A stretch of 64,000 nt of DNA from Lysobacter luteus (GTDB lineage Bacteria > Pseudomonadota > Gammaproteobacteria > Xanthomonadales > Xanthomonadaceae): contig NZ_OU015430.1 of NCBI RefSeq assembly GCF_907164845.1, positions 2,222,001-2,286,000 on the forward strand, read 5' to 3'. The notes under the pieces were generated by a model. That model did no database searches, was not told the origin of the DNA, and saw only the letters and a program-made list of their open reading frames with translations. Below are positions 5,120 through 12,887 of this stretch, one piece after another (position 1 is the first letter of the stretch; each line of letters begins with the position of its first letter). The position numbers and the translations under genes were made by a program.

Positions 5120-5611
5120 ATGACCATGGACCAGCTCTGCATCGTCACCACCGGCGGCACGATCGACAAGATCTACTTCGACGACAAGTCGGACTTCCAG
5201 ATCGGCGAACCGCAGATCGGTCGCATCCTCGACGAGCTGGGCGTGGCGTTCCGCTATTCGGTGATCCCGATCCTGCGCAAGGACTCGCTGCACATCACCG
5301 ACGGCGACCGCGAACTGGTCCGCGCCACCATCGCCGCGCAGGACGCGCGCCACGTGCTGGTGACCCACGGCACCGATTCGATGGTGGCGACCGCGAAGGT
5401 GCTCGCCAGCATTCCGGGCAAGACCATCGTGCTCACCGGCGCGCTCAATCCGGCGCGCTTCCGCGGGTCGGACGCGGAATTCAACATCGGCACCGCGGTC
5501 GGCGCGGTGCAGTCCCTCCCGGCCGGTGTGTACATCGCGATGAACGGCCGCATCTGGGACCCGGCCAGCGTCCGCAAGAACGTCGACGCCAACCGGTTCG
5601 AGGCGCTGTAG
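5120..5611 (+). CDS. Short asparaginase-domain protein
   Basis: 163 residues (161 if ATG 5126 is used). It carries both threonine active-site segments of type I/II L-asparaginase: TTGGTIDKIYFDD near the N-terminus (nucleophile Thr) and VTHGTDSMVATA in the middle (Thr-Asp pair). Full asparaginases are about 320-340 residues with a second C-terminal domain that completes the active site between subunits. Here the protein ends cleanly after the N-terminal domain. The rest of the frame shows no sign of decay, so this looks like a stable small family rather than a fresh truncation. Whether it hydrolyses asparagine is open. It has its own 72-bp upstream gap. Confidence 0.75.
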   Translation: MTMDQLCIVTTGGTIDKIYFDDKSDFQIGEPQIGRILDELGVAFRYSVIPILRKDSLHITDGDRELVRATIAAQDARHVLVTHGTDSMVATAKVLASIPGKTIVLTGALNPARFRGSDAEFNIGTAVGAVQSLPAGVYIAMNGRIWDPASVRKNVDANRFEAL

Positions 5612-5736: not shown

Positions 5737-6402
5737 TCAGAACGTGACGCTCCAGCTGTTGATGTAACCGGTGTCGCCGCTGTAGGCGTCGTTGACCCGC
5801 AGCTTCCAGGTACCGTTGAGGGCTTCGCCGGACAGGTCGACATTGGCGGACCCGATGATGTTGTCGGCGCTGCCGCCACTGCGGTTGTGCAGGTTGTAGG
5901 TGCTGCCGTCCGGCGCCACCAGGTCCACCTTCAGGTCGCCCTTGTAGGTGTGGCGGATGTCGAGGTCCACGCGGGTGCTCGACGGGCCATTGCCACTGCG
6001 ACCGGAGACGGTGATCGGACTTTCAACCGTCGCCCGGTCGCGTATCTGGTAGTCGGCGCTGTTGGTGTAGGTCTGCTGCCCGCCACCGCCGCCGCCGCCC
6101 GTGCTGTAGTCACCGACCAGGCCGACGTTGCTGAAGCTCGAGTACGCCTTGATGCGCACGTGGTAGGTGCCCGCGGTCGGCACGGCGAAGGTGCAGCTCT
6201 CGCTGTTTCCGCTGCGGTACGGCCGGCAGTCGTAGCTGCTGTCGGTCGGTACGCTGCCACGCTTGACGTACAGGTCGGCGTCGCCGCTGCCGCCGGACAT
6301 GGTGAACACCAGGCTGGTCGCACCGGCCGGCACTTCCAGCGTGTAAACCACGTCGTTGCCCGTGGAGGCCGACAGGCCGGTGACCGGCACGCCCTTCTCC
6401 AG
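5737..6402. repeat. Direct repeat copy A: PPC plus P-domain coding module
   Basis: This 666-bp stretch encodes the C-terminal 221 residues of the M28 peptidase and aligns without a gap to 7875-8540 (constant offset 2138 bp), which encodes the C-terminus of the S8 protease. By eye 15 of 221 residues differ and most codons are identical even at third positions. Both copies lie on the minus strand in the same orientation. Confidence 0.9.
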
Positions 6403-7728
6403 GCTGCCCTCGCCCGGACCCGGCTCGCCCACGCCGGCGGTTTTGGCCAGTTCGCCGAGGAAGGCCAGCCCGAGCTTGGCCAGCGGCACGCTGCCGTGGG
6501 CCGTGCCTCCCATGCTGGCCAGCGTGTCGTAGCGGGTGTGGATGTCGTTGTTGAAGCTGGCCTCGAACATCATGGCCGCCGGGTAACCGGCACTTGTCCA
6601 CGAGGCATGGTCGGAGCAGCCGTAGCCGCACGTGTAGCTGCCACGCGTCAGGCCGAGCGGCGCGAGGTACTCGTCGAAGATGTCGCGCACGAACTGCTTG
6701 AGGTCGTTGTTGCTGTAGTCGCTGAGCAGCTGCATGTCGACGCTGGCGCCGGCGGTATGGTTGGTCATGTCCAGCTGCATCACGCCGACCACGTTCAGGC
6801 CCTGCTGCCGGAACGACTGGGCTATGGCGTTGGAGCCGCGCAGCCCCACCTCCTCGGCGGCGTAGCCCATGAACTTCACCGTGCGCCGGGGCTGCCAGCC
6901 ATCGGCCAGCGCCACGCGGACCACCTCGGTCAGGGTGGCGATGCCGGAGGCGTCGTCGTCGGCGCCGGGGGCGTCCATCGCGTCGCCGCTGCCGGCGTTG
7001 GAGACCGAGTCGAGGTGGCCGCCCAGCACGACGATCTCGCCGGGCAGCTCACTGCCTTGAATCGTGAGGATCACGGACGGCTGGCCGCCGCAGGTATCGC
7101 AATCGAAGAAGGAAACGCTGGCGTCGCTACGGCCTGCCGACAGGCTGGCCCAGGTGTCATGGATCCACTGCGCGGCGTCATGGCCGGGAGCCGAGTTGTA
7201 GTAGCGGTTGGCGTACCCGGTGGAGAGGTGGTCGATGGTGCCGCGGATGTTGGATTCGGCGACCTGCGGCAGCCACGGCCCGACGGTGGCCTGGTTGTCG
7301 ACGGTGTATCCGGCGAACGTCGTGGTGATCGCCTGCGCGCTGCGCTCCTGCGCCAGGAAGCGCTCGGCTTCGGCGCGACTGGCAAACGCGAAGTAGCCGC
7401 CGCACCGGCGTTCCACGTCGTGGACGTGGCGACCGATGTCGGGAAGCTGGTGGGCCAGCACCTGCGAGACAACCAGCCGCGCACCGGTACCGTCGCGTTG
7501 GGCGGTGGCGTCGCGGGCGATCGATTGCAGTGCACCGCGGTAGGTCTCGGCGGAGCTGACGATGTAGACCGGGGCCTGCGGGTCGCGCGCGATCGTTTCG
7601 GCCAGGTGGCGGTCAACGTGGGCGTGGGCGCCGGACGGGGCGTCGGCGGGAGCGCCAGGCTCCTGCGCGGCGGCGGCAGGCAGGGTGAGGACCGCCAGCA
7701 TGGCGGCATTGATCAGGGAACGCTTCAT
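5737..7728 (-). CDS. Secreted M28 zinc aminopeptidase with PPC and P domains
   Basis: 663 residues. A signal peptide (residues 1-21, ending AAAAQ) is followed by a propeptide-like region. The M28 domain spans about 150-430, with metal ligands and catalytic residues in the expected order: H238 (GGHLDS), D257 (GADDDASG), E292/E293 (AEEVG), D320 (QLDMT) and H397 (IHTRYD). This pattern is that of the Vibrio/Aeromonas leucyl aminopeptidases, which trim N-terminal residues from peptides outside the cell. Residues about 443-540 form a PPC domain; after a poly-Gly linker, 551-663 is a P (proprotein convertase) domain. Both are usually cut off or help folding and secretion. A good Shine-Dalgarno (AAGGAAGG) precedes ATG 7728. 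The last 221 residues are almost identical to those of the neighbouring S8 protease. Confidence 0.93.
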   Translation of the reverse strand: MKRSLINAAMLAVLTLPAAAAQEPGAPADAPSGAHAHVDRHLAETIARDPQAPVYIVSSAETYRGALQSIARDATAQRDGTGARLVVSQVLAHQLPDIGRHVHDVERRCGGYFAFASRAEAERFLAQERSAQAITTTFAGYTVDNQATVGPWLPQVAESNIRGTIDHLSTGYANRYYNSAPGHDAAQWIHDTWASLSAGRSDASVSFFDCDTCGGQPSVILTIQGSELPGEIVVLGGHLDSVSNAGSGDAMDAPGADDDASGIATLTEVVRVALADGWQPRRTVKFMGYAAEEVGLRGSNAIAQSFRQQGLNVVGVMQLDMTNHTAGASVDMQLLSDYSNNDLKQFVRDIFDEYLAPLGLTRGSYTCGYGCSDHASWTSAGYPAAMMFEASFNNDIHTRYDTLASMGGTAHGSVPLAKLGLAFLGELAKTAGVGEPGPGEGSLEKGVPVTGLSASTGNDVVYTLEVPAGATSLVFTMSGGSGDADLYVKRGSVPTDSSYDCRPYRSGNSESCTFAVPTAGTYHVRIKAYSSFSNVGLVGDYSTGGGGGGGQQTYTNSADYQIRDRATVESPITVSGRSGNGPSSTRVDLDIRHTYKGDLKVDLVAPDGSTYNLHNRSGGSADNIIGSANVDLSGEALNGTWKLRVNDAYSGDTGYINSWSVTF

Positions 7729-7826
7729 CGGACCTTCCTTGTGATGACCGCCATCCGGGCGGCTCGCGTGATTTGGATAGCGGACACCGGTCCGCCTGGA
7801 CCTCCCCCTGTTCGGTCCGCAAAGGA

Positions 7827-7854
7827 CGCGGTCCCGTTTCCGGGACCGCGTTTT
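7827..7854. terminator. Hairpin between the two protease genes, likely terminator
   Basis: A perfect 10-bp stem (7827-7836 with 7841-7850, loop TTTC) is followed on the + strand by TTTT. The flanking genes are both on the minus strand, where the hairpin lies about 25 bp past the S8 stop codon. On that strand an A4 tract precedes the stem and only a weak T stretch (GTCCTTTG) follows. It may stop S8 transcripts before the M28 gene, but the orientation is not the classic one. Confidence 0.55.
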
Positions 7855-7874
7855 GTTACCGGATTGCGCTCCGG

Positions 7875-8540
7875 TCAGAACGTGATGCTCCAGCTGTTGA
7901 TGTAGCCGGTGTCGCCGCTGTAGGCGTCGTTGACCCGCAGCTTCCAGGTGCCGTTGAGGGCCTCGCTGGACAGGTTGAGGGTGGCGTAGCCGATGATGTT
8001 GTCGGCGCTGCCGCCACTGCGGTTGTGCAGGTTGTATGTGCTGCCGTCCGGCGCCACCAGGTCCACCTTCAGGTCGCCCTTGTAGGTGTGCCGGATGTCG
8101 AGGTCCACGCGGGTGCTCGACGGGCCATTGCCACTGCGACCGGACACGCTGATCGGGCTTTCAACCGTCGCCCGGTCGCGGATCTGGTAATCGCCGCTGT
8201 TGGTGTAGGTCTGCTGTCCGCCACCGCCACCGCCGCCCGTGCTGTAGTCACCGACCAGGCTGACGTTGCTGAAGCTCGAGTACGCCTTGATGCGCACGTA
8301 GTAGGTGCCCGCGGTCGGCGCGGCGAAGGTGCAGCTCTCGCTGTTGCCGCTGCGGTACGGCCGGCAGTCGTAGCTGCTGTCGGTGGGTGCGCTGCCACGC
8401 TTGACGTACATGTCGGCATCTCCGCTGCCGCCGGACATGGTGAACACCAGGTTGGTCGCACCGGCCGGCACTTCCAGCGTGTAAACCACGTCGTTGCCCG
8501 TGGAGGCCGACAGGCCGGTGACCGGCACGCCCTTCTGAAG
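7875..8540. repeat. Direct repeat copy B: PPC plus P-domain coding module
   Basis: The second copy of the 666-bp module, encoding the C-terminal 221 residues of the S8 protease. It has no insertions or deletions relative to 5737-6402. Differences cluster near the last third of the P domain (around 7970-7995), where several adjacent residues differ. Confidence 0.9.
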
Positions 8541-10004
8541 GGTGCCGTTGCCCGGACCCGGGTCCCCCGGGTCACCCGGGTCGCCACCGGACACCGCATC
8601 GACCGCGGCCTTGGCGTTCACGATGCCGTCGCCGATGTCGCGGTCGATGGAGACCGGGAACGCCCGCAGGGTGCTCTTCAGGGTCGACTCGACCTGCGAC
8701 GGGGTCAGCGACCCGCCCGCGGCCGCCTGCATCAGCGCGACCACGCCGGCCACGTGCGGCGCCGCCATCGAGGTGCCCGACATCAGGCTGTAACCCTCGG
8801 ACGACGGCGTGGTGGCGCCGCTGTTGACCGTCGAGGCGATGTCGCTGCCCGGGGCGGCCACGTCGATCAGGCTGCCGTAGTTGGAGAAGCTCGAGCGCGC
8901 GCCGGTGCGGGTGGTCGATGCCACCGCGACGACGTTGTTGCAGCTGGCCGGGGTGAAGCCGGAGGTGTCGGCGTTGCTGTTGCCGGCCGCCACCACCACC
9001 GTCGTGCCGCGGCCCACGGCGGCATTGACCGCATTCTGGTAGCTGGCCGAGCACGCGCCGCCGCCGCCCAGGCTCATGTTGATGACCTCGGCCGGGTTGG
9101 CATTGGCCGGGACGCCGCTGACCGTGCCGCCGGACGCCCAGACGATGCCGTCGACGATGTCGGAGGTGTAGCCGCCGCACTTGCCGAGCACGCGGACCGG
9201 CACGACCTTCGCGCCGTACGCCACGCCCGCCACGCCGGAGTTGTTGTTGGTGACCGCCGCGACGGTGCCGGCGACATGGCTGCCATGCCAGCTGGAGTTG
9301 CTGGCCGGGTGGCTCCCGCCGCACTCGTTGGCGGCATACCAGTCACCCTCGTCCTGTGCGTTGCCGTCACGGCCGTTGCCGTCGCGCGCCATGCCCGAGT
9401 CGCTGATGAAGTCGTAGCCAGGCAGCACATTGGCGTTGAGGTCGCTGTGGTTGGTGATGCCGGTATCGATCACCGCCACCACGACGCCGCTGCCGTTGGT
9501 CGCATCCCAGGCCTGGTCGGCCTTGATGCCGCCCGCGGCTTCCCAGTAGTGCCACTGGTGGCTGGTGTAGTAGGTGTCGTTGGCGGTGGCGATCGGCTTC
9601 ATGATCCGGTCGACTTCGACGTACTCGACGTCCGGGTCGGCTGCCAGCTGGCGCATCAGCGCCTCGGCCTCGCTGGGGCCCAGCTTCTTGCCGGTGACCA
9701 GCACGTCGGAGCCGATCGCGGTGCGGCGCAGCTTCTTCAGCCCCAGCGCCTGCCCGTGCAGGGTGCTGTTGGCGGCCGCGTTGAGCGAGCGGTTCAGGGC
9801 CGCGGCGCTGGCGCGCTGGGCGCTGCCCTCGCGGTACTTGATGATGAAGCGGTCATTGCCGACATCCGACTGCAGGCCCGCGGTGTTGACCACACCCTGG
9901 CCCGCAGCGACGGCCGGTGCGGACGCCATCGCGGCCGCGAGGACGGCCGCGGTGGCCGCGGCGAGGGCGTGGGTGCGGAACCCGCGCAAAGAGTCTTGAG
10001 ACAT
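7875..10004 (-). CDS. Secreted S8 (subtilisin-like) serine protease with PPC and P domains
   Basis: 709 residues from ATG 10004. Signal peptide about 1-35 (ALA-rich, ending AVAAG), an inhibitor-type prodomain about 50-135, and catalytic domain about 150-470. The catalytic triad is D180 (VIDTG), H240 (WHGSHVAG) and S412 (GTSMAAPHVAG), with oxyanion N342 (AAGNS). A Gly-Asp-Pro linker (about 473-487) leads into a PPC domain (about 489-590) and a P domain (about 597-709). Such proteases are exported by type II secretion in Lysobacter relatives and degrade extracellular protein. A longer in-frame opening to 10250 lacks a signal peptide at its start, so ATG 10004 was chosen. The C-terminal module duplicates that of the downstream M28 peptidase. 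Confidence 0.93.
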   Translation of the reverse strand: MSQDSLRGFRTHALAAATAAVLAAAMASAPAVAAGQGVVNTAGLQSDVGNDRFIIKYREGSAQRASAAALNRSLNAAANSTLHGQALGLKKLRRTAIGSDVLVTGKKLGPSEAEALMRQLAADPDVEYVEVDRIMKPIATANDTYYTSHQWHYWEAAGGIKADQAWDATNGSGVVVAVIDTGITNHSDLNANVLPGYDFISDSGMARDGNGRDGNAQDEGDWYAANECGGSHPASNSSWHGSHVAGTVAAVTNNNSGVAGVAYGAKVVPVRVLGKCGGYTSDIVDGIVWASGGTVSGVPANANPAEVINMSLGGGGACSASYQNAVNAAVGRGTTVVVAAGNSNADTSGFTPASCNNVVAVASTTRTGARSSFSNYGSLIDVAAPGSDIASTVNSGATTPSSEGYSLMSGTSMAAPHVAGVVALMQAAAGGSLTPSQVESTLKSTLRAFPVSIDRDIGDGIVNAKAAVDAVSGGDPGDPGDPGPGNGTLQKGVPVTGLSASTGNDVVYTLEVPAGATNLVFTMSGGSGDADMYVKRGSAPTDSSYDCRPYRSGNSESCTFAAPTAGTYYVRIKAYSSFSNVSLVGDYSTGGGGGGGQQTYTNSGDYQIRDRATVESPISVSGRSGNGPSSTRVDLDIRHTYKGDLKVDLVAPDGSTYNLHNRSGGSADNIIGYATLNLSSEALNGTWKLRVNDAYSGDTGYINSWSITF

Positions 10005-10360
10005 TCGTGAAACCCCCGAAAAGTAACGCCGCAATCGCGGCAAAGGTTTCGTCTGGTTCCTCGCACCCGAAGCCTCCGAAGGCACTCCGTTGCACGGGCC
10101 GGACGAACGTTCGGCGAGGTCTGTCTTCCTGAACCAAGCCGAAACGCAACCTAGGGGGAGAAGTTCGGGGTCCACAACACCGCATGCGGCGAATAACGGC
10201 CCCGTAACGAAGATGAACAGACACCGTCGCCGGAGAGCCTTGCGTGGCAAGGCCCGGCGGATTCCAAATCGTTACGGTGGGGCGACAGAAATGTTGCAAA
10301 GCAGCAACATTCTGCGCAAAAACGGCAAACCCTGACCCAATGGGTCACCCTATTCCGGGT
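10005..10360. other. 356-bp non-coding region with the S8 protease leader and inverted repeats
   Basis: There is no credible gene here. It must hold the promoter and 5' leader of the minus-strand S8 protease gene and the 3' flank of sufT. An inverted repeat AATGTTGC (10290-10297) / GCAACATT (10304-10311) with a 6-nt spacer lies about 290 bp upstream of the protease start. A 15-bp palindrome TGACCCAATGGGTCA lies at 10333-10347, just past the sufT stop; read on the minus strand it is followed by T-rich sequence, so it could be a weak sufT terminator. Base composition is less GC-rich than the surroundings around 10260-10330. No promoter could be assigned with confidence. Confidence 0.6.
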
Positions 10361-10918: not shown

Positions 10919-11020
10919 GGGCGGGGCGGCCGGAGGCGGAAACTTGAATCGGACCATTCTAGTCCAATATCGCCTGCGCGCCGTGCCCGCTATGCTGGCG
11001 CGCCGCCCCGACCCCACTGA

Positions 11021-11461
11021 ATGAGCCGTCCCGTGACCCCAGCCGCCCGCCGCACCTTCGCGCCCGTGGCGGCCCCCTTGACCGGCTGGCTGCTGCTGGT
11101 CCTCGGCGTGGCGACGTTCGTCGTGGCGTGGGTCGCGCTCGGATTCTCCAGCGGGCGGCAGCACAGTTGGATGGCAGTGCTGGGCGCGCTGGACGTGGCC
11201 CTGATGCTGCGGCTCGGGCGTTGGCGCCCGGGCAGCCTGCGCATACCCGTGGCGGTGCTGGCCACCTTCGTGATCATCGCGCTGGCCAACTGGGGCCAGA
11301 TCGCGGCACAACTGGGGAAGATGCTCGGCTACGCGCCCTGGGAGTCGGCGGTGCGACTGGGGTTCCACCACGCCTGGACCCTCACCCGGCTGGCCAACGA
11401 CGCTACCGATGTCGTCTGGTGGCTGCTGGCGGTGGTGGTGGCGGCGCTGGCCTCGCGCTGA
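11021..11461 (+). CDS. Hypothetical inner-membrane protein
   Basis: 146 residues with about four hydrophobic segments (roughly 19-42, 49-66, 73-96 and 128-144) and an Arg/Pro-rich N-terminus. No family motif was recognised. It reads toward pntB on the opposite strand, with about 10 bp between the two stop codons. The regular third-position GC bias and clean frame support a real gene. Function unknown. Confidence 0.7.
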   Translation: MSRPVTPAARRTFAPVAAPLTGWLLLVLGVATFVVAWVALGFSSGRQHSWMAVLGALDVALMLRLGRWRPGSLRIPVAVLATFVIIALANWGQIAAQLGKMLGYAPWESAVRLGFHHAWTLTRLANDATDVVWWLLAVVVAALASR

Positions 11462-11471
11462 TTGTCGGTGG

Positions 11472-12887
11472 TCAGTGGCCGCCGTCCATGGCCTTCAGCT
11501 CGCTGACCAGCGCGCCGGCCATCTCGGCCCCGTCGCCGTACAGCATCCGCGCGTTGTCGGCGTAGAACAGCGCATTCTCGATCCCCGCGAAGCCGGTGCC
11601 GCGGCCACGTTTGATCACCACCACGTTCTTCGCGTCCACCACGTCCAGGATCGGCATGCCGTAGATCGGCGACGCCGGATCGGTCCGGGCCACCGGGTTG
11701 ACCACGTCGTTGGCCCCGATCACCAGCGCGACGTCGGTCTGCCGGAACTCGGGGTTGATGTCGTCCATGTCGGTGATGAGGTCGTAGGGCACGCCGGCCT
11801 CGGCCAGCAGCACGTTCATGTGGCCGGGCATGCGACCGGCGACCGGGTGGATCGCGAACTTCACCTTGACCCCGCGTTCGACCAGCTTCTGGGTCAGCTC
11901 CCAGATCTTGTGCTGGGCCTGGGCTACGGCCATGCCGTAGCCCGGCACGATCACCACGCGCTCGGCGTAGGCCATCATCGCGGCCACGTCGCCGGCCTCG
12001 ATGGGTTTCTGCGCGCCGCTGATTTCCTGCGCCTCGCCGCCACCACCGAAGTTGGAGAACAGCACGCCGCTGATCGGCCGGTTCATCGCCCGGGCCATCA
12101 GCCGGGTCAGCAGCATGCCGGCCGCGCCGACCATGGTGCCGGCGATCACCAGCGCCTGGTTGCCAAGCACGTAGCCTTCGAACGCCACCGCCAATCCGGT
12201 CAGCGCGTTGTACAGCGAGATCACCACCGGCATGTCGGCGCCGCCGATCGGCAGCGTCATCAGAACGCCCAGCGCCAGCGCCAGCACGAAGAACGCAATG
12301 ATCACCGGCACCTCGAGCGTCGCCACCGCCCAGCCGCCGGCCACCACCATCGCGACGAACACCAGCGCGTTGAAGACCTGCTGGCCGGGGAACACGACCC
12401 TGCGGTCGAGCCGCCCGTCGAGCTTGGCCCAGGCGATCACCGAACCCGACAGCGACACCGCGCCGATCGCCGCGCCGAGCACCGCCAGCACCAGCGTGGC
12501 CATCGATGGCGAGGTGCCGGCCTGCGCGACCGCCGCCACGCCGGTGGCCATCGCCGAGAACCGCAGCAGCTCGACCGCGCCGATCGCCGCCGCCGAGCCA
12601 CCCCCCATGCCGTTGTAGAGCGCGACCATCTGCGGCATGTCAGTGATCGCGACGCGGCGTCCCGATACCCACGCCGCGCCTGCGCCGATGGCCAGCGCGG
12701 CGAGGATCAGACCGAGGTTGTCGAGTCCGAGCAGGCAGGTCGCCGCGGTCGCCAGCAACATGCCGACGCCGGCCCAGCGGATGCCGCTGCGCGCCGTGCG
12801 CGGCGAGGCCATCCGCTGCAGCCCGAGCAGGAACAACGTGGCCGCGACCAGGTAGCTCGCCGCGGCGAGCAGCCCCGCGGCGGTCAT
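11472..12887 (-). CDS. pntB: NAD(P) transhydrogenase subunit beta
   Basis: 471 residues, close to the family norm (about 460). The first about 270 residues form the membrane domain; the C-terminal third is the NADP(H)-binding domain III, with VPGYGMAVAQAQ, the KFAIHPVAGRMPGHMNVLLAE-like block and a VALVIGANDVVNPVA segment. The enzyme couples proton entry to hydride transfer from NADH to NADP+ and supplies NADPH. The start at 12887 overlaps the pntAB stop by 4 bp, so the two are coupled. The catalytic alpha subunit part (pntAA) lies 1.6 kb upstream beyond three genes on the other strand. Confidence 0.95.
   Translation of the reverse strand: MTAAGLLAAASYLVAATLFLLGLQRMASPRTARSGIRWAGVGMLLATAATCLLGLDNLGLILAALAIGAGAAWVSGRRVAITDMPQMVALYNGMGGGSAAAIGAVELLRFSAMATGVAAVAQAGTSPSMATLVLAVLGAAIGAVSLSGSVIAWAKLDGRLDRRVVFPGQQVFNALVFVAMVVAGGWAVATLEVPVIIAFFVLALALGVLMTLPIGGADMPVVISLYNALTGLAVAFEGYVLGNQALVIAGTMVGAAGMLLTRLMARAMNRPISGVLFSNFGGGGEAQEISGAQKPIEAGDVAAMMAYAERVVIVPGYGMAVAQAQHKIWELTQKLVERGVKVKFAIHPVAGRMPGHMNVLLAEAGVPYDLITDMDDINPEFRQTDVALVIGANDVVNPVARTDPASPIYGMPILDVVDAKNVVVIKRGRGTGFAGIENALFYADNARMLYGDGAEMAGALVSELKAMDGGH

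What the first reader, a model, noticed from the sequence alone, without database searches (positions are those of the whole stretch)
5737..8540. Nearly identical PPC + P-domain module shared by two tandem proteases of different catalytic families
The M28 zinc aminopeptidase and the neighbouring S8 serine protease end with the same 221-residue module. The two 666-bp copies align without gaps, differ at 15 of 221 residues by eye, and most codons are identical. The catalytic parts are unrelated, so this is module transfer or ongoing gene conversion, not simple gene duplication. The copies are direct repeats 2138 bp apart; recombination between them would delete the M28 gene but leave an intact S8 gene, a simple route to loss of one activity.
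Basis: seen in the sequence. Interest (0 to 1): 0.6.

Follow-up and report, generated by a model that had tools for sequence, protein, structure and literature searches.

The report
Neighbouring proteases share homogenised tails
Two neighbouring secreted proteases with unrelated catalytic parts carry almost the same C-terminal tail, most likely because the cell copied one tail over the other, and related bacteria show the same thing with other pairs of proteases.

Summary
The M28 and S8 genes end in gap-free 666-nt copies (5737-6402 and 7875-8540, minus strand) with 33 nt and 15 residue differences, 2138 bp apart. The copies agree at 103/115 fourfold sites (0.90), against 108/159 (0.68) for the M28 catalytic domain between this genome and congener G009. 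Congener G003 has the same tandem at the same locus with tails only 71% identical, so the likeness arose after the tandem. In the whole-tail tree grouping by catalytic type is rejected (AU p 0.003 and 0.02); with the P-domain alone it is not (p 0.26).
The pattern recurs. Of 22 M28 genes that share their locus with a tailed protease of another class, 12 have a tail closer to that neighbour's than to any tail of another sampled genome; 9 of these 12 are alike at synonymous sites too. In 10 of 22 the closest tail is in another genome. Some pairs are homogenised in one domain only, and identity falls with distance. Six beta-proteobacterial M4/M28 pairs show no such likeness.
Best reading: episodic intragenomic gene conversion confined to the tails. 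The predicted M28-deletion allele was not seen; congener G009 lacks S8 instead.

The parts
5737..7728 (-). M28 zinc aminopeptidase-like gene, 663 aa, second of the tandem; N-terminus looks like a signal peptide (inference)
   Evidence: Pfam M28 3.3e-34 at residues 219-405; LapA equivalog model matched but below its cut-off (186.9 vs 600 bits)
6514..7074 (-). M28 catalytic domain (Pfam span)
   Evidence: residues read as metal ligands (labels recalled) are invariant in 10 of 10 aligned relatives
5737..6402 (-). Tail copy 1 (PPC + Gly linker + P-domain + stop), 666 nt
6148..6348 (-). PPC domain of M28 protein (Pfam span)
   Evidence: PF04151 9.2e-22; nearest solved structure by sequence 2luw, 3.1e-27
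5740..5976 (-). P-domain of M28 protein (Pfam span)
   Evidence: PF01483 1.9e-20
7875..10004 (-). S8 subtilase gene, 709 aa (MSQDSLRG..., ATG at 10004-10002), first of the tandem
   Evidence: Pfam S8 6.7e-60 (run on an extended frame from 10142); start read from the sequence
8640..9494 (-). S8 catalytic domain (Pfam span)
7875..8540 (-). Tail copy 2 (PPC + Gly linker + P-domain + stop), 666 nt
8286..8486 (-). PPC domain of S8 protein (Pfam span)
   Evidence: PF04151 3.9e-21
7878..8114 (-). P-domain of S8 protein (Pfam span)
   Evidence: PF01483 6.2e-20
7729..7874 (-). 146-bp spacer between S8 and M28, with a perfect 10-bp hairpin with GAAA loop at 7827-7850
   Evidence: sequence; fold z-score -3.9 (stretch 7729-7880)
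7889..10027 (-). Segment absent from the syntenic locus of congener G009: the S8 gene from 23 nt upstream of its start to all but its last 14 nt
   Evidence: collinear alignment breaks at 10028 and 7888

Best explanation
The tandem S8 and M28 genes encode proteases, probably exported, whose catalytic parts are unrelated but whose C-terminal PPC + P-domain tails are homologous. Because the tails are direct repeats about 2.1 kb apart, homologous recombination copies one tail over the other (ectopic, intragenomic gene conversion). Tracts can extend only as far as homology does, so the tails evolve in concert while the catalytic parts do not. In this genome the last large event came after the split from congener G003 and, by tail divergence against ortholog divergence, probably after the split from G009; a small patch (alignment codons 195-204) escaped or was rewritten later. 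The same process acts episodically on other neighbouring protease pairs (M4-M28, S1-S8, S1-M28, M14-M28) in Lysobacterales. Shown: the excess similarity at synonymous sites, within-genome pairing, dependence on proximity, domain-limited tracts in relatives. Inferred: conversion as the physical mechanism, its direction (unresolved), export, and the benefit. The tail is taken to be an accessory folding, stability or substrate-binding module that works on several catalytic parts, so overwriting it is tolerated or useful.
For: (1) Tail pair: fourfold identity 103/115 = 0.90 and same codon at 189 of 206 positions with the same residue, against 108/159 = 0.68 and 213/281 for the M28 catalytic domain G000-G009; chance of the same codon from codon usage 0.63. 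(2) The same syntenic tandem in G003 has tails 70.9% nt, fourfold 0.54. (3) Whole-tail tree of 10 rows: G000 pair 100/99; AU rejects the genus M28 tails together (p 0.0034), G000 S8 + G003 S8 (p 0.021) and G000 M28 + G009 M28 without S8 (p 0.0001). (4) Quartets: G027 and L. penaei, each M4-M28, tails 99.7% and 97.8% within genome, 86.5-86.9% between; G031 and G016 P-domains 92.5% and 96.1% within, 74.8-79.3% between. (5) 12 of 22 M28 genes with a tailed protease of another class in the locus are closer in the last tail domain to that gene than to any other genome's tail; in 9 of the 12 fourfold identity is 0.83-1.00. P-domains with nearest relative in the own locus on another class: 28 of 99, shuffled mean 1.3, maximum 7 in 2000. 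(6) Proximity: adjacent different-class P-domains median 85.7% (n 25), same genome other locus 69.3% (n 24). (7) Mosaics: Dokdonella fugitiva PKD 93-100%, PPC 63-82%, P 97-100%; G016 and G031 P homogenised, PPC not.
Against: 10 of 22 M28 tails are closest to another genome's tail, 9 of these 10 to another M28; over all tails the nearest relative lies in another genome for 59 of 99 P-domains and 52 of 79 PPC domains. Three of the 12 positive pairs (L078, L080, L102) have fourfold identity of only 0.68-0.75, so they are old or unproven; the whole A. oryziterrae (L080) tail pair has 75/116 = 0.65. With the P-domain alone AU rejects neither the three genus M28 copies as one clade (p 0.259) nor G000 S8 + G003 S8 (p 0.254). 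One event plus drift fits this pair as well as repeated conversion. YN00 gives dS 0.33 against 0.12 by NG86 for the pair, so its age is uncertain. Loci were chosen around M28 hits and best module hits, not at random; pairs are not independent. Very high identities in draft genomes could be inflated by assembly.
Confidence: 0.8

Rival explanations
1. One-off tail transfer here: in an ancestor of this species a single recombination replaced one tail by the other and the copies have drifted since, with no recurring homogenisation at this locus. (Overlaps with the best reading, which claims recurrence for the order, not for this pair.)
For: Differences are spread evenly apart from one patch (longest identical run 84 nt, P 0.32).
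Against: Separate homogenised pairs in other genomes and domain-limited mosaics show that events recur in the order; the small patch (8 differences in 30 nt, P 0.007) hints at more than one event here.
Confidence: 0.35
2. Interspecies import: the S8 gene or the pair came by horizontal transfer from a relative with homogenised tails.
For: S8 differs less between G000 and G003 (81.1% over the gene) than the flanks and M28 do (73-79%), and the S8-M28 block is absent between nearly contiguous flanks in 3 congeners.
Against: Locus and flanks are collinear with G009 at 82.5-83.2% and the M28 catalytic domain is 85.9% identical, which fits vertical descent of M28; no closer donor tail appears among the sampled genomes.
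Confidence: 0.12
3. Strong purifying selection or codon constraint keeps the two tails alike without recombination.
For: dN/dS is below 1 for the pair (NG86 0.031/0.121).
Against: Synonymous sites are homogenised too: 0.90 at fourfold sites against 0.54-0.76 in the other comparisons among the eight genus tails; the same two genes in G003 have diverged freely.
Confidence: 0.02
4. Simple tandem duplication of a whole gene with later divergence of the catalytic half.
For: Tandem, same strand.
Against: S8 and M28 are different Pfam families; the M28 tail type differs between species (PPC+P, PKD+P, PPC+unnamed domain, FG-GAP, none) while the catalytic domain is conserved.
Confidence: 0.01

Closest known systems
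Porphyromonas gingivalis RgpA / Kgp / HagA shared adhesin domains (PMC5266723, passages seen)
   Same: Accessory domains of secreted surface proteins with identical repeats within and between genes, combined modularly, hard to assemble; gene conversion is named as a route to variation in that species
   Different: Different phylum, secretion system (type IX) and domains (cleaved adhesin, DUF2436); the gingipain catalytic parts are related to each other (recalled) and the genes are not a tandem pair (recalled). Here PPC/P tails move between neighbouring proteases of unrelated classes
Concerted evolution of tandem paralogues by gene conversion (general, recalled)
   Same: Within-genome pairing, dependence on proximity, homogenised synonymous sites
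   Different: Here only an accessory C-terminal module is homologous; the genes as wholes are not paralogues
Laboratory exchange of the C-terminal PPC domain between Stenotrophomonas keratinases KerSMD and KerSMF (PMC4720410, abstract seen; PMC4906391, passages seen)
   Same: A PPC tail can be replaced or cut and the protease stays active, with changed activity and stability
   Different: Engineered, between two homologous proteases; no P-domain mentioned in what I saw
Subtilases with PPC and/or P-domain tails (PMC2605481, passages seen)
   Same: The architectures themselves (subtilase-PPC, subtilase-P_proprotein, subtilase-PA-PPC-P_proprotein) are listed there
   Different: The passages seen say nothing on neighbouring genes sharing near-identical tails

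Membership tests
Concerted evolution by gene conversion | Copies within a genome closer than orthologous copies between species, synonymous sites included | tested here: met
   the P-domain alone is inconclusive for the genus; 3 of 12 positive pairs elsewhere are weak at synonymous sites
Concerted evolution by gene conversion | Stronger between near neighbours than between distant copies of the same genome | tested here: met
   P-domain p 2.8e-8, PPC p 0.024 (pairs not independent; 12 of the 24 distant P pairs are from G023); exceptions: G016 M28 with an M4 on another contig P 96.7%, G009 M28 with a distant S8 PPC 88.2%
Concerted evolution by gene conversion | Patchy tracts inside the homologous stretch | tested here: met
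   for G016, G031, D. fugitiva, G009; in the window itself one patch only
Concerted evolution by gene conversion | Non-reciprocal transfer with known donor and recipient | tested here: inconclusive
   site patterns split (of 32 differing codons G009 M28 matches the M28 copy at 14 and the S8 copy at 12)
LapA-type M28 aminopeptidase (NF045908) | Score above the curated equivalog cut-off | tested here: not met
   186.9 of 600 bits; it is an M28 peptidase, not shown to be LapA
Peptidase family M28 | Pfam model above gathering score, metal-ligand positions kept | tested here: met
   118.7 vs 21.3 bits; H138, D157-159, E192-193, D220, H274 of the alignment invariant in 10 of 10 rows (ligand roles recalled)
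Peptidase family S8 | Pfam model above gathering score | tested here: met
   203.3 vs 21.8 bits
Type II secreted protease | Export by the type II system | not testable with these tools
   GspD is present above cut-off in this genome (520.4 vs 351.35 bits); no export data

The most novel reading that the evidence does not exclude
Lysobacterales keep their secreted-protease clusters as a 'one tail, many catalytic heads' system: a cluster shares one tail type, recombination joints tend to fall in inter-domain linkers, and tails are rewritten from neighbour to neighbour repeatedly, so that proteases of unrelated classes share the same targeting or substrate-binding surface and improvements spread through the cluster.
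Probability: 0.3. Interest if true: 0.65.

Novelty: new variant of a known kind. Interest (0 to 1): 0.5.

Why it matters
Gene conversion is usually described between whole paralogues. Here it appears to work between genes that share only an accessory tail, recurs with different catalytic partners in one bacterial order, and sometimes covers a single domain. It gives a natural counterpart to domain-swap experiments, warns that trees or transfers inferred from the tails of secreted proteases can mislead, and asks what the PPC/P tail does that makes sharing it tolerable or useful.

Tried and rejected
Literature: five searches for this phenomenon (search listings only, open-licence PMC library) listed no report of it that I recognised. 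One search (Caldicellulosiruptor CBM modules as a parallel) gave only loosely related papers and was not pursued. led to the P. gingivalis parallel, to the Stenotrophomonas papers.

G009 lacks the S8 gene instead; the ends of that gap (10027 and 7889) do not lie one in each tail repeat, as crossing-over between the window's repeats would require, and its length (2139 bp) being close to the repeat spacing (2138 bp) is taken as coincidence.

Donor and recipient in this genome: the site patterns do not decide.

Several separate tracts in the window copies: longest identical run not unusual (P 0.32); one cluster of differences is (P 0.007). These P values come from 5000 uniform shuffles of 33 differences.

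Control outside the order: six beta-proteobacterial M4/M28 pairs with PPC on both have 41.5-52.2% nt identity within the pair, against 59-95% in the three between-species comparisons made for each class. In one of the six (L141) the genes are divergent, not tandem on one strand.

Structure prediction was not run: family models were enough and it would not test recombination.
Full report
OBSERVATION. The window lies on the single 2.77-Mb contig of its genome, G000. On the minus strand an S8 subtilase gene (10004-7875) is followed after 146 bp by an M28 peptidase gene (7728-5737). Pfam finds S8 + PPC + P_proprotein in the first and M28 + PPC + P_proprotein in the second. The last 666 nt of both genes align without gaps with 33 nt differences (95.0%), 15 amino-acid differences and 17 synonymous codon differences. 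They are direct repeats spaced 2138 bp.

IS IT MORE THAN CONSERVATION? Yes. At fourfold sites the two tails agree at 103 of 115 (0.90), and among 206 positions with the same residue 189 have the same codon; chance from codon usage is 0.63. For the M28 catalytic domain between this genome and congener G009 the figures are 108/159 (0.68) and 213/281. dS for the tail pair is 0.12 by NG86 (0.33 by YN00) against 0.44 by NG86 for that ortholog pair.

THE SAME LOCUS IN THE GENUS. Ten genomes of the genus are held. G003 has the same S8-M28 tandem in the same place (collinear flanks), but its two tails are only 70.9% identical with fourfold identity 0.54. G009 has M28 without S8: the collinear alignment jumps from window 10028 to 7888. 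At the junction 12 of 14 nt match the last 14 nt of S8, a short match that suggests loss of S8 there. The other 7 genomes have no close M28. In 3 of them (G004, G005, G007) both flanks are present 316-589 bp apart, so both genes are absent from the locus; in the other 4 the SufT-side flank aligned but nothing of S8, M28 or the far flank did in the fetched stretch (about 4.4 kb only for G008). Since G003 already carries PPC+P on both genes, what happened in this genome was replacement of one homologous tail by the other, not the first gain of a tail.

TREES. In the whole-tail tree of 10 rows the G000 pair is joined with support 100/99. Holding the three genus M28 tails together is rejected (AU p 0.0034), as are G000 S8 + G003 S8 (p 0.021) and G000 M28 + G009 M28 (p 0.0001). 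With the P-domain alone in a 64-row tree, all 19 M28 copies as one clade is rejected (p 3.75e-109), but the three genus M28 copies (p 0.259) and the two S8 copies (p 0.254) are not. The groups were named after seeing earlier trees. In the PPC tree G003 S8 pairs with a distant S8 of the same genome (90/95) and, more weakly, G009 M28 with a distant S8 of G009 (83/65), while the P-domains of those distant S8 genes go with S8 genes of other genomes: PPC and P have separate histories. The S8 catalytic domain of the window is 86.2% identical to a distant S8 paralogue of the same genome (L061) whose tail is only 77.5% identical.

HOW WIDESPREAD. The order is inferred from record titles, most of which are Lysobacteraceae and relatives; L102 is titled only Gammaproteobacteria, and L090 is titled as an actinobacterium. 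Neighbouring proteins of different class with near-identical tails include G036 S1-S8 99.0% over 696 nt; G027 M4-M28 98.7% over 668; Lysobacter penaei M4-M28 97.8% over 668; L. chinensis M4-M28 98.2% over 566; Dokdonella fugitiva 1183-aa protein and M28 89.5% over 1051 (classes). Of 27 M28 genes with a PPC or P tail, 5 have no other-class gene with that domain in the locus. Of the other 22, 12 are closer in the last tail domain to such a gene (in each of the 12 the gene next door) than to any other genome's tail; 10 are closer to another genome's, 9 of these to an M28. For G016 an M4 tail on another contig of the same genome is slightly closer still (96.7 against 96.1%). In 9 of the 12 fourfold identity is 0.83-1.00; in 3 (L078, L080, L102) it is 0.68-0.75, so those are old or unproven. 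Among 99 P-domains, 28 have the nearest relative in their own locus on another class; with locus labels shuffled within class the mean is 1.3 and the maximum 7 in 2000 shuffles (relatives of the same genome and class set aside). Counting all relatives, the nearest is in another genome for 59 of 99 P-domains and 52 of 79 PPC domains. Adjacent different-class P-domains have median identity 85.7% (n 25), same locus further away 78.6% (n 20), same genome other locus 69.3% (n 24, half of them from G023), other genome same class 72.0% (n 1002). For PPC the contrast is weaker: 78.1% (n 17) against 68.7% (n 22), p 0.024. Pairs share genomes and are not independent, so p values are indicative.

CLEANEST CASES. 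G027 and L. penaei both have M4-M28 with a tail of PPC plus an unnamed PPC-like domain (Pfam PPC E 7e-4, under the cut-off). Within genomes the tails are 99.7% and 97.8% identical (fourfold 118/118 and 112/119), between genomes 86.5-86.9% (fourfold 0.69-0.71); the orthologous catalytic domains have fourfold identity 0.58-0.59. So two tails were homogenised separately in two species. G031 and G016 show the same for the P-domain. L. chinensis M4-M28 is homogenised (fourfold 99/102) but its comparison partner Arenimonas oryziterrae is not at synonymous sites (75/116). G021 and L086 show the opposite pattern: tails follow the class (all).

MOSAICS. In D. fugitiva PKD (93-100%, edge window 79%) and P (97-100%) are homogenised while the PPC between them is not (63-82%). 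In G016 and G031 only P is; in G009 PPC, not P, is alike between M28 and a distant S8. Edges often fall at inter-domain linkers (read from 20-codon windows, so rough).

CONTROL. Six beta-proteobacterial M4/M28 pairs carry PPC on both but share only 41.5-52.2% within the pair, less than between species for the same class. Homogenisation is thus not an automatic result of having tailed neighbours.

MECHANISM AND FUNCTION. Most likely homologous recombination between direct repeats, resolved as conversion, makes the tails alike from time to time. The genome has a type II secretin (GspD 520 bits, over cut-off), and a passage of PMC6789491 says that Stenotrophomonas serine proteases StmPR1-3 are secreted by a type II system. 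In Stenotrophomonas keratinase, swapping or cutting the PPC domain changes activity, substrate preference and stability without abolishing activity (PMC4720410 abstract; PMC4906391 passages). The nearest solved structure by sequence to the PPC part is 2luw, deposited as a metalloprotease. An interchangeable substrate-binding or stabilising tail is therefore plausible but untested here.

VERDICT. Real, and best explained by episodic gene conversion restricted to accessory tails of unrelated neighbouring proteases; a new variant of a known kind. Open: direction, rate, benefit, and whether events still happen in this species.

Noticed in passing
window 7827-7850 (within 7729-7874): Perfect 10-bp hairpin with GAAA loop between the S8 and M28 genes; the spacer folds better than all 200 shuffles (z -3.9). 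May attenuate read-through or protect the S8 transcript.
   Followed up: partly
window 7889-10027 vs L035 around 8030-8036: Congener G009 lacks the S8 gene at this locus; 12 of 14 nt at the junction match the end of S8, suggesting a deletion.
   Followed up: yes
window 5120-5611: A 163-aa asparaginase-like ORF (name from reading the sequence) next to the tandem, about half the usual length (recalled); that flank aligns up to 5604-5607 in G004, G005 and G007.
   Followed up: no
L042, L077, L049, L071 C-termini: An unnamed C-terminal domain of about 100 aa (CxGC...GWL+GP...FDLELYRW...) after PPC in M4, M28, S1 and S8 proteases; only a sub-threshold PPC match in Pfam for the one copy tested.
   Followed up: partly
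L072:7215-8035 and 10973-11793: Two large neighbouring proteins of G016 share 821 nt of tail at 98.4%; the one scanned (L072:5160-8135) has no recognised protease domain.
   Followed up: partly
L098:3958-7509: 1183-aa Dokdonella fugitiva protein with homogenised PKD and P but an unrecognised N-terminal part; only a weak M4 hint (E 0.13).
   Followed up: partly
L047:7097-10036: M28 protease of G016 with an FG-GAP tail instead of PPC/P; the same genome has another M28 of this kind in L043.
   Followed up: no
L090: A contig titled Arsenicicoccus bolidensis (an actinobacterium) carries an M28 gene 62% identical to the query; possibly contamination or transfer.
   Followed up: no
window 5887-7905 and 7773-10010, plus strand: Long antisense open frames (672 and 745 aa) over both protease genes, probably a by-product of G+C-rich codon usage.
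   Followed up: no
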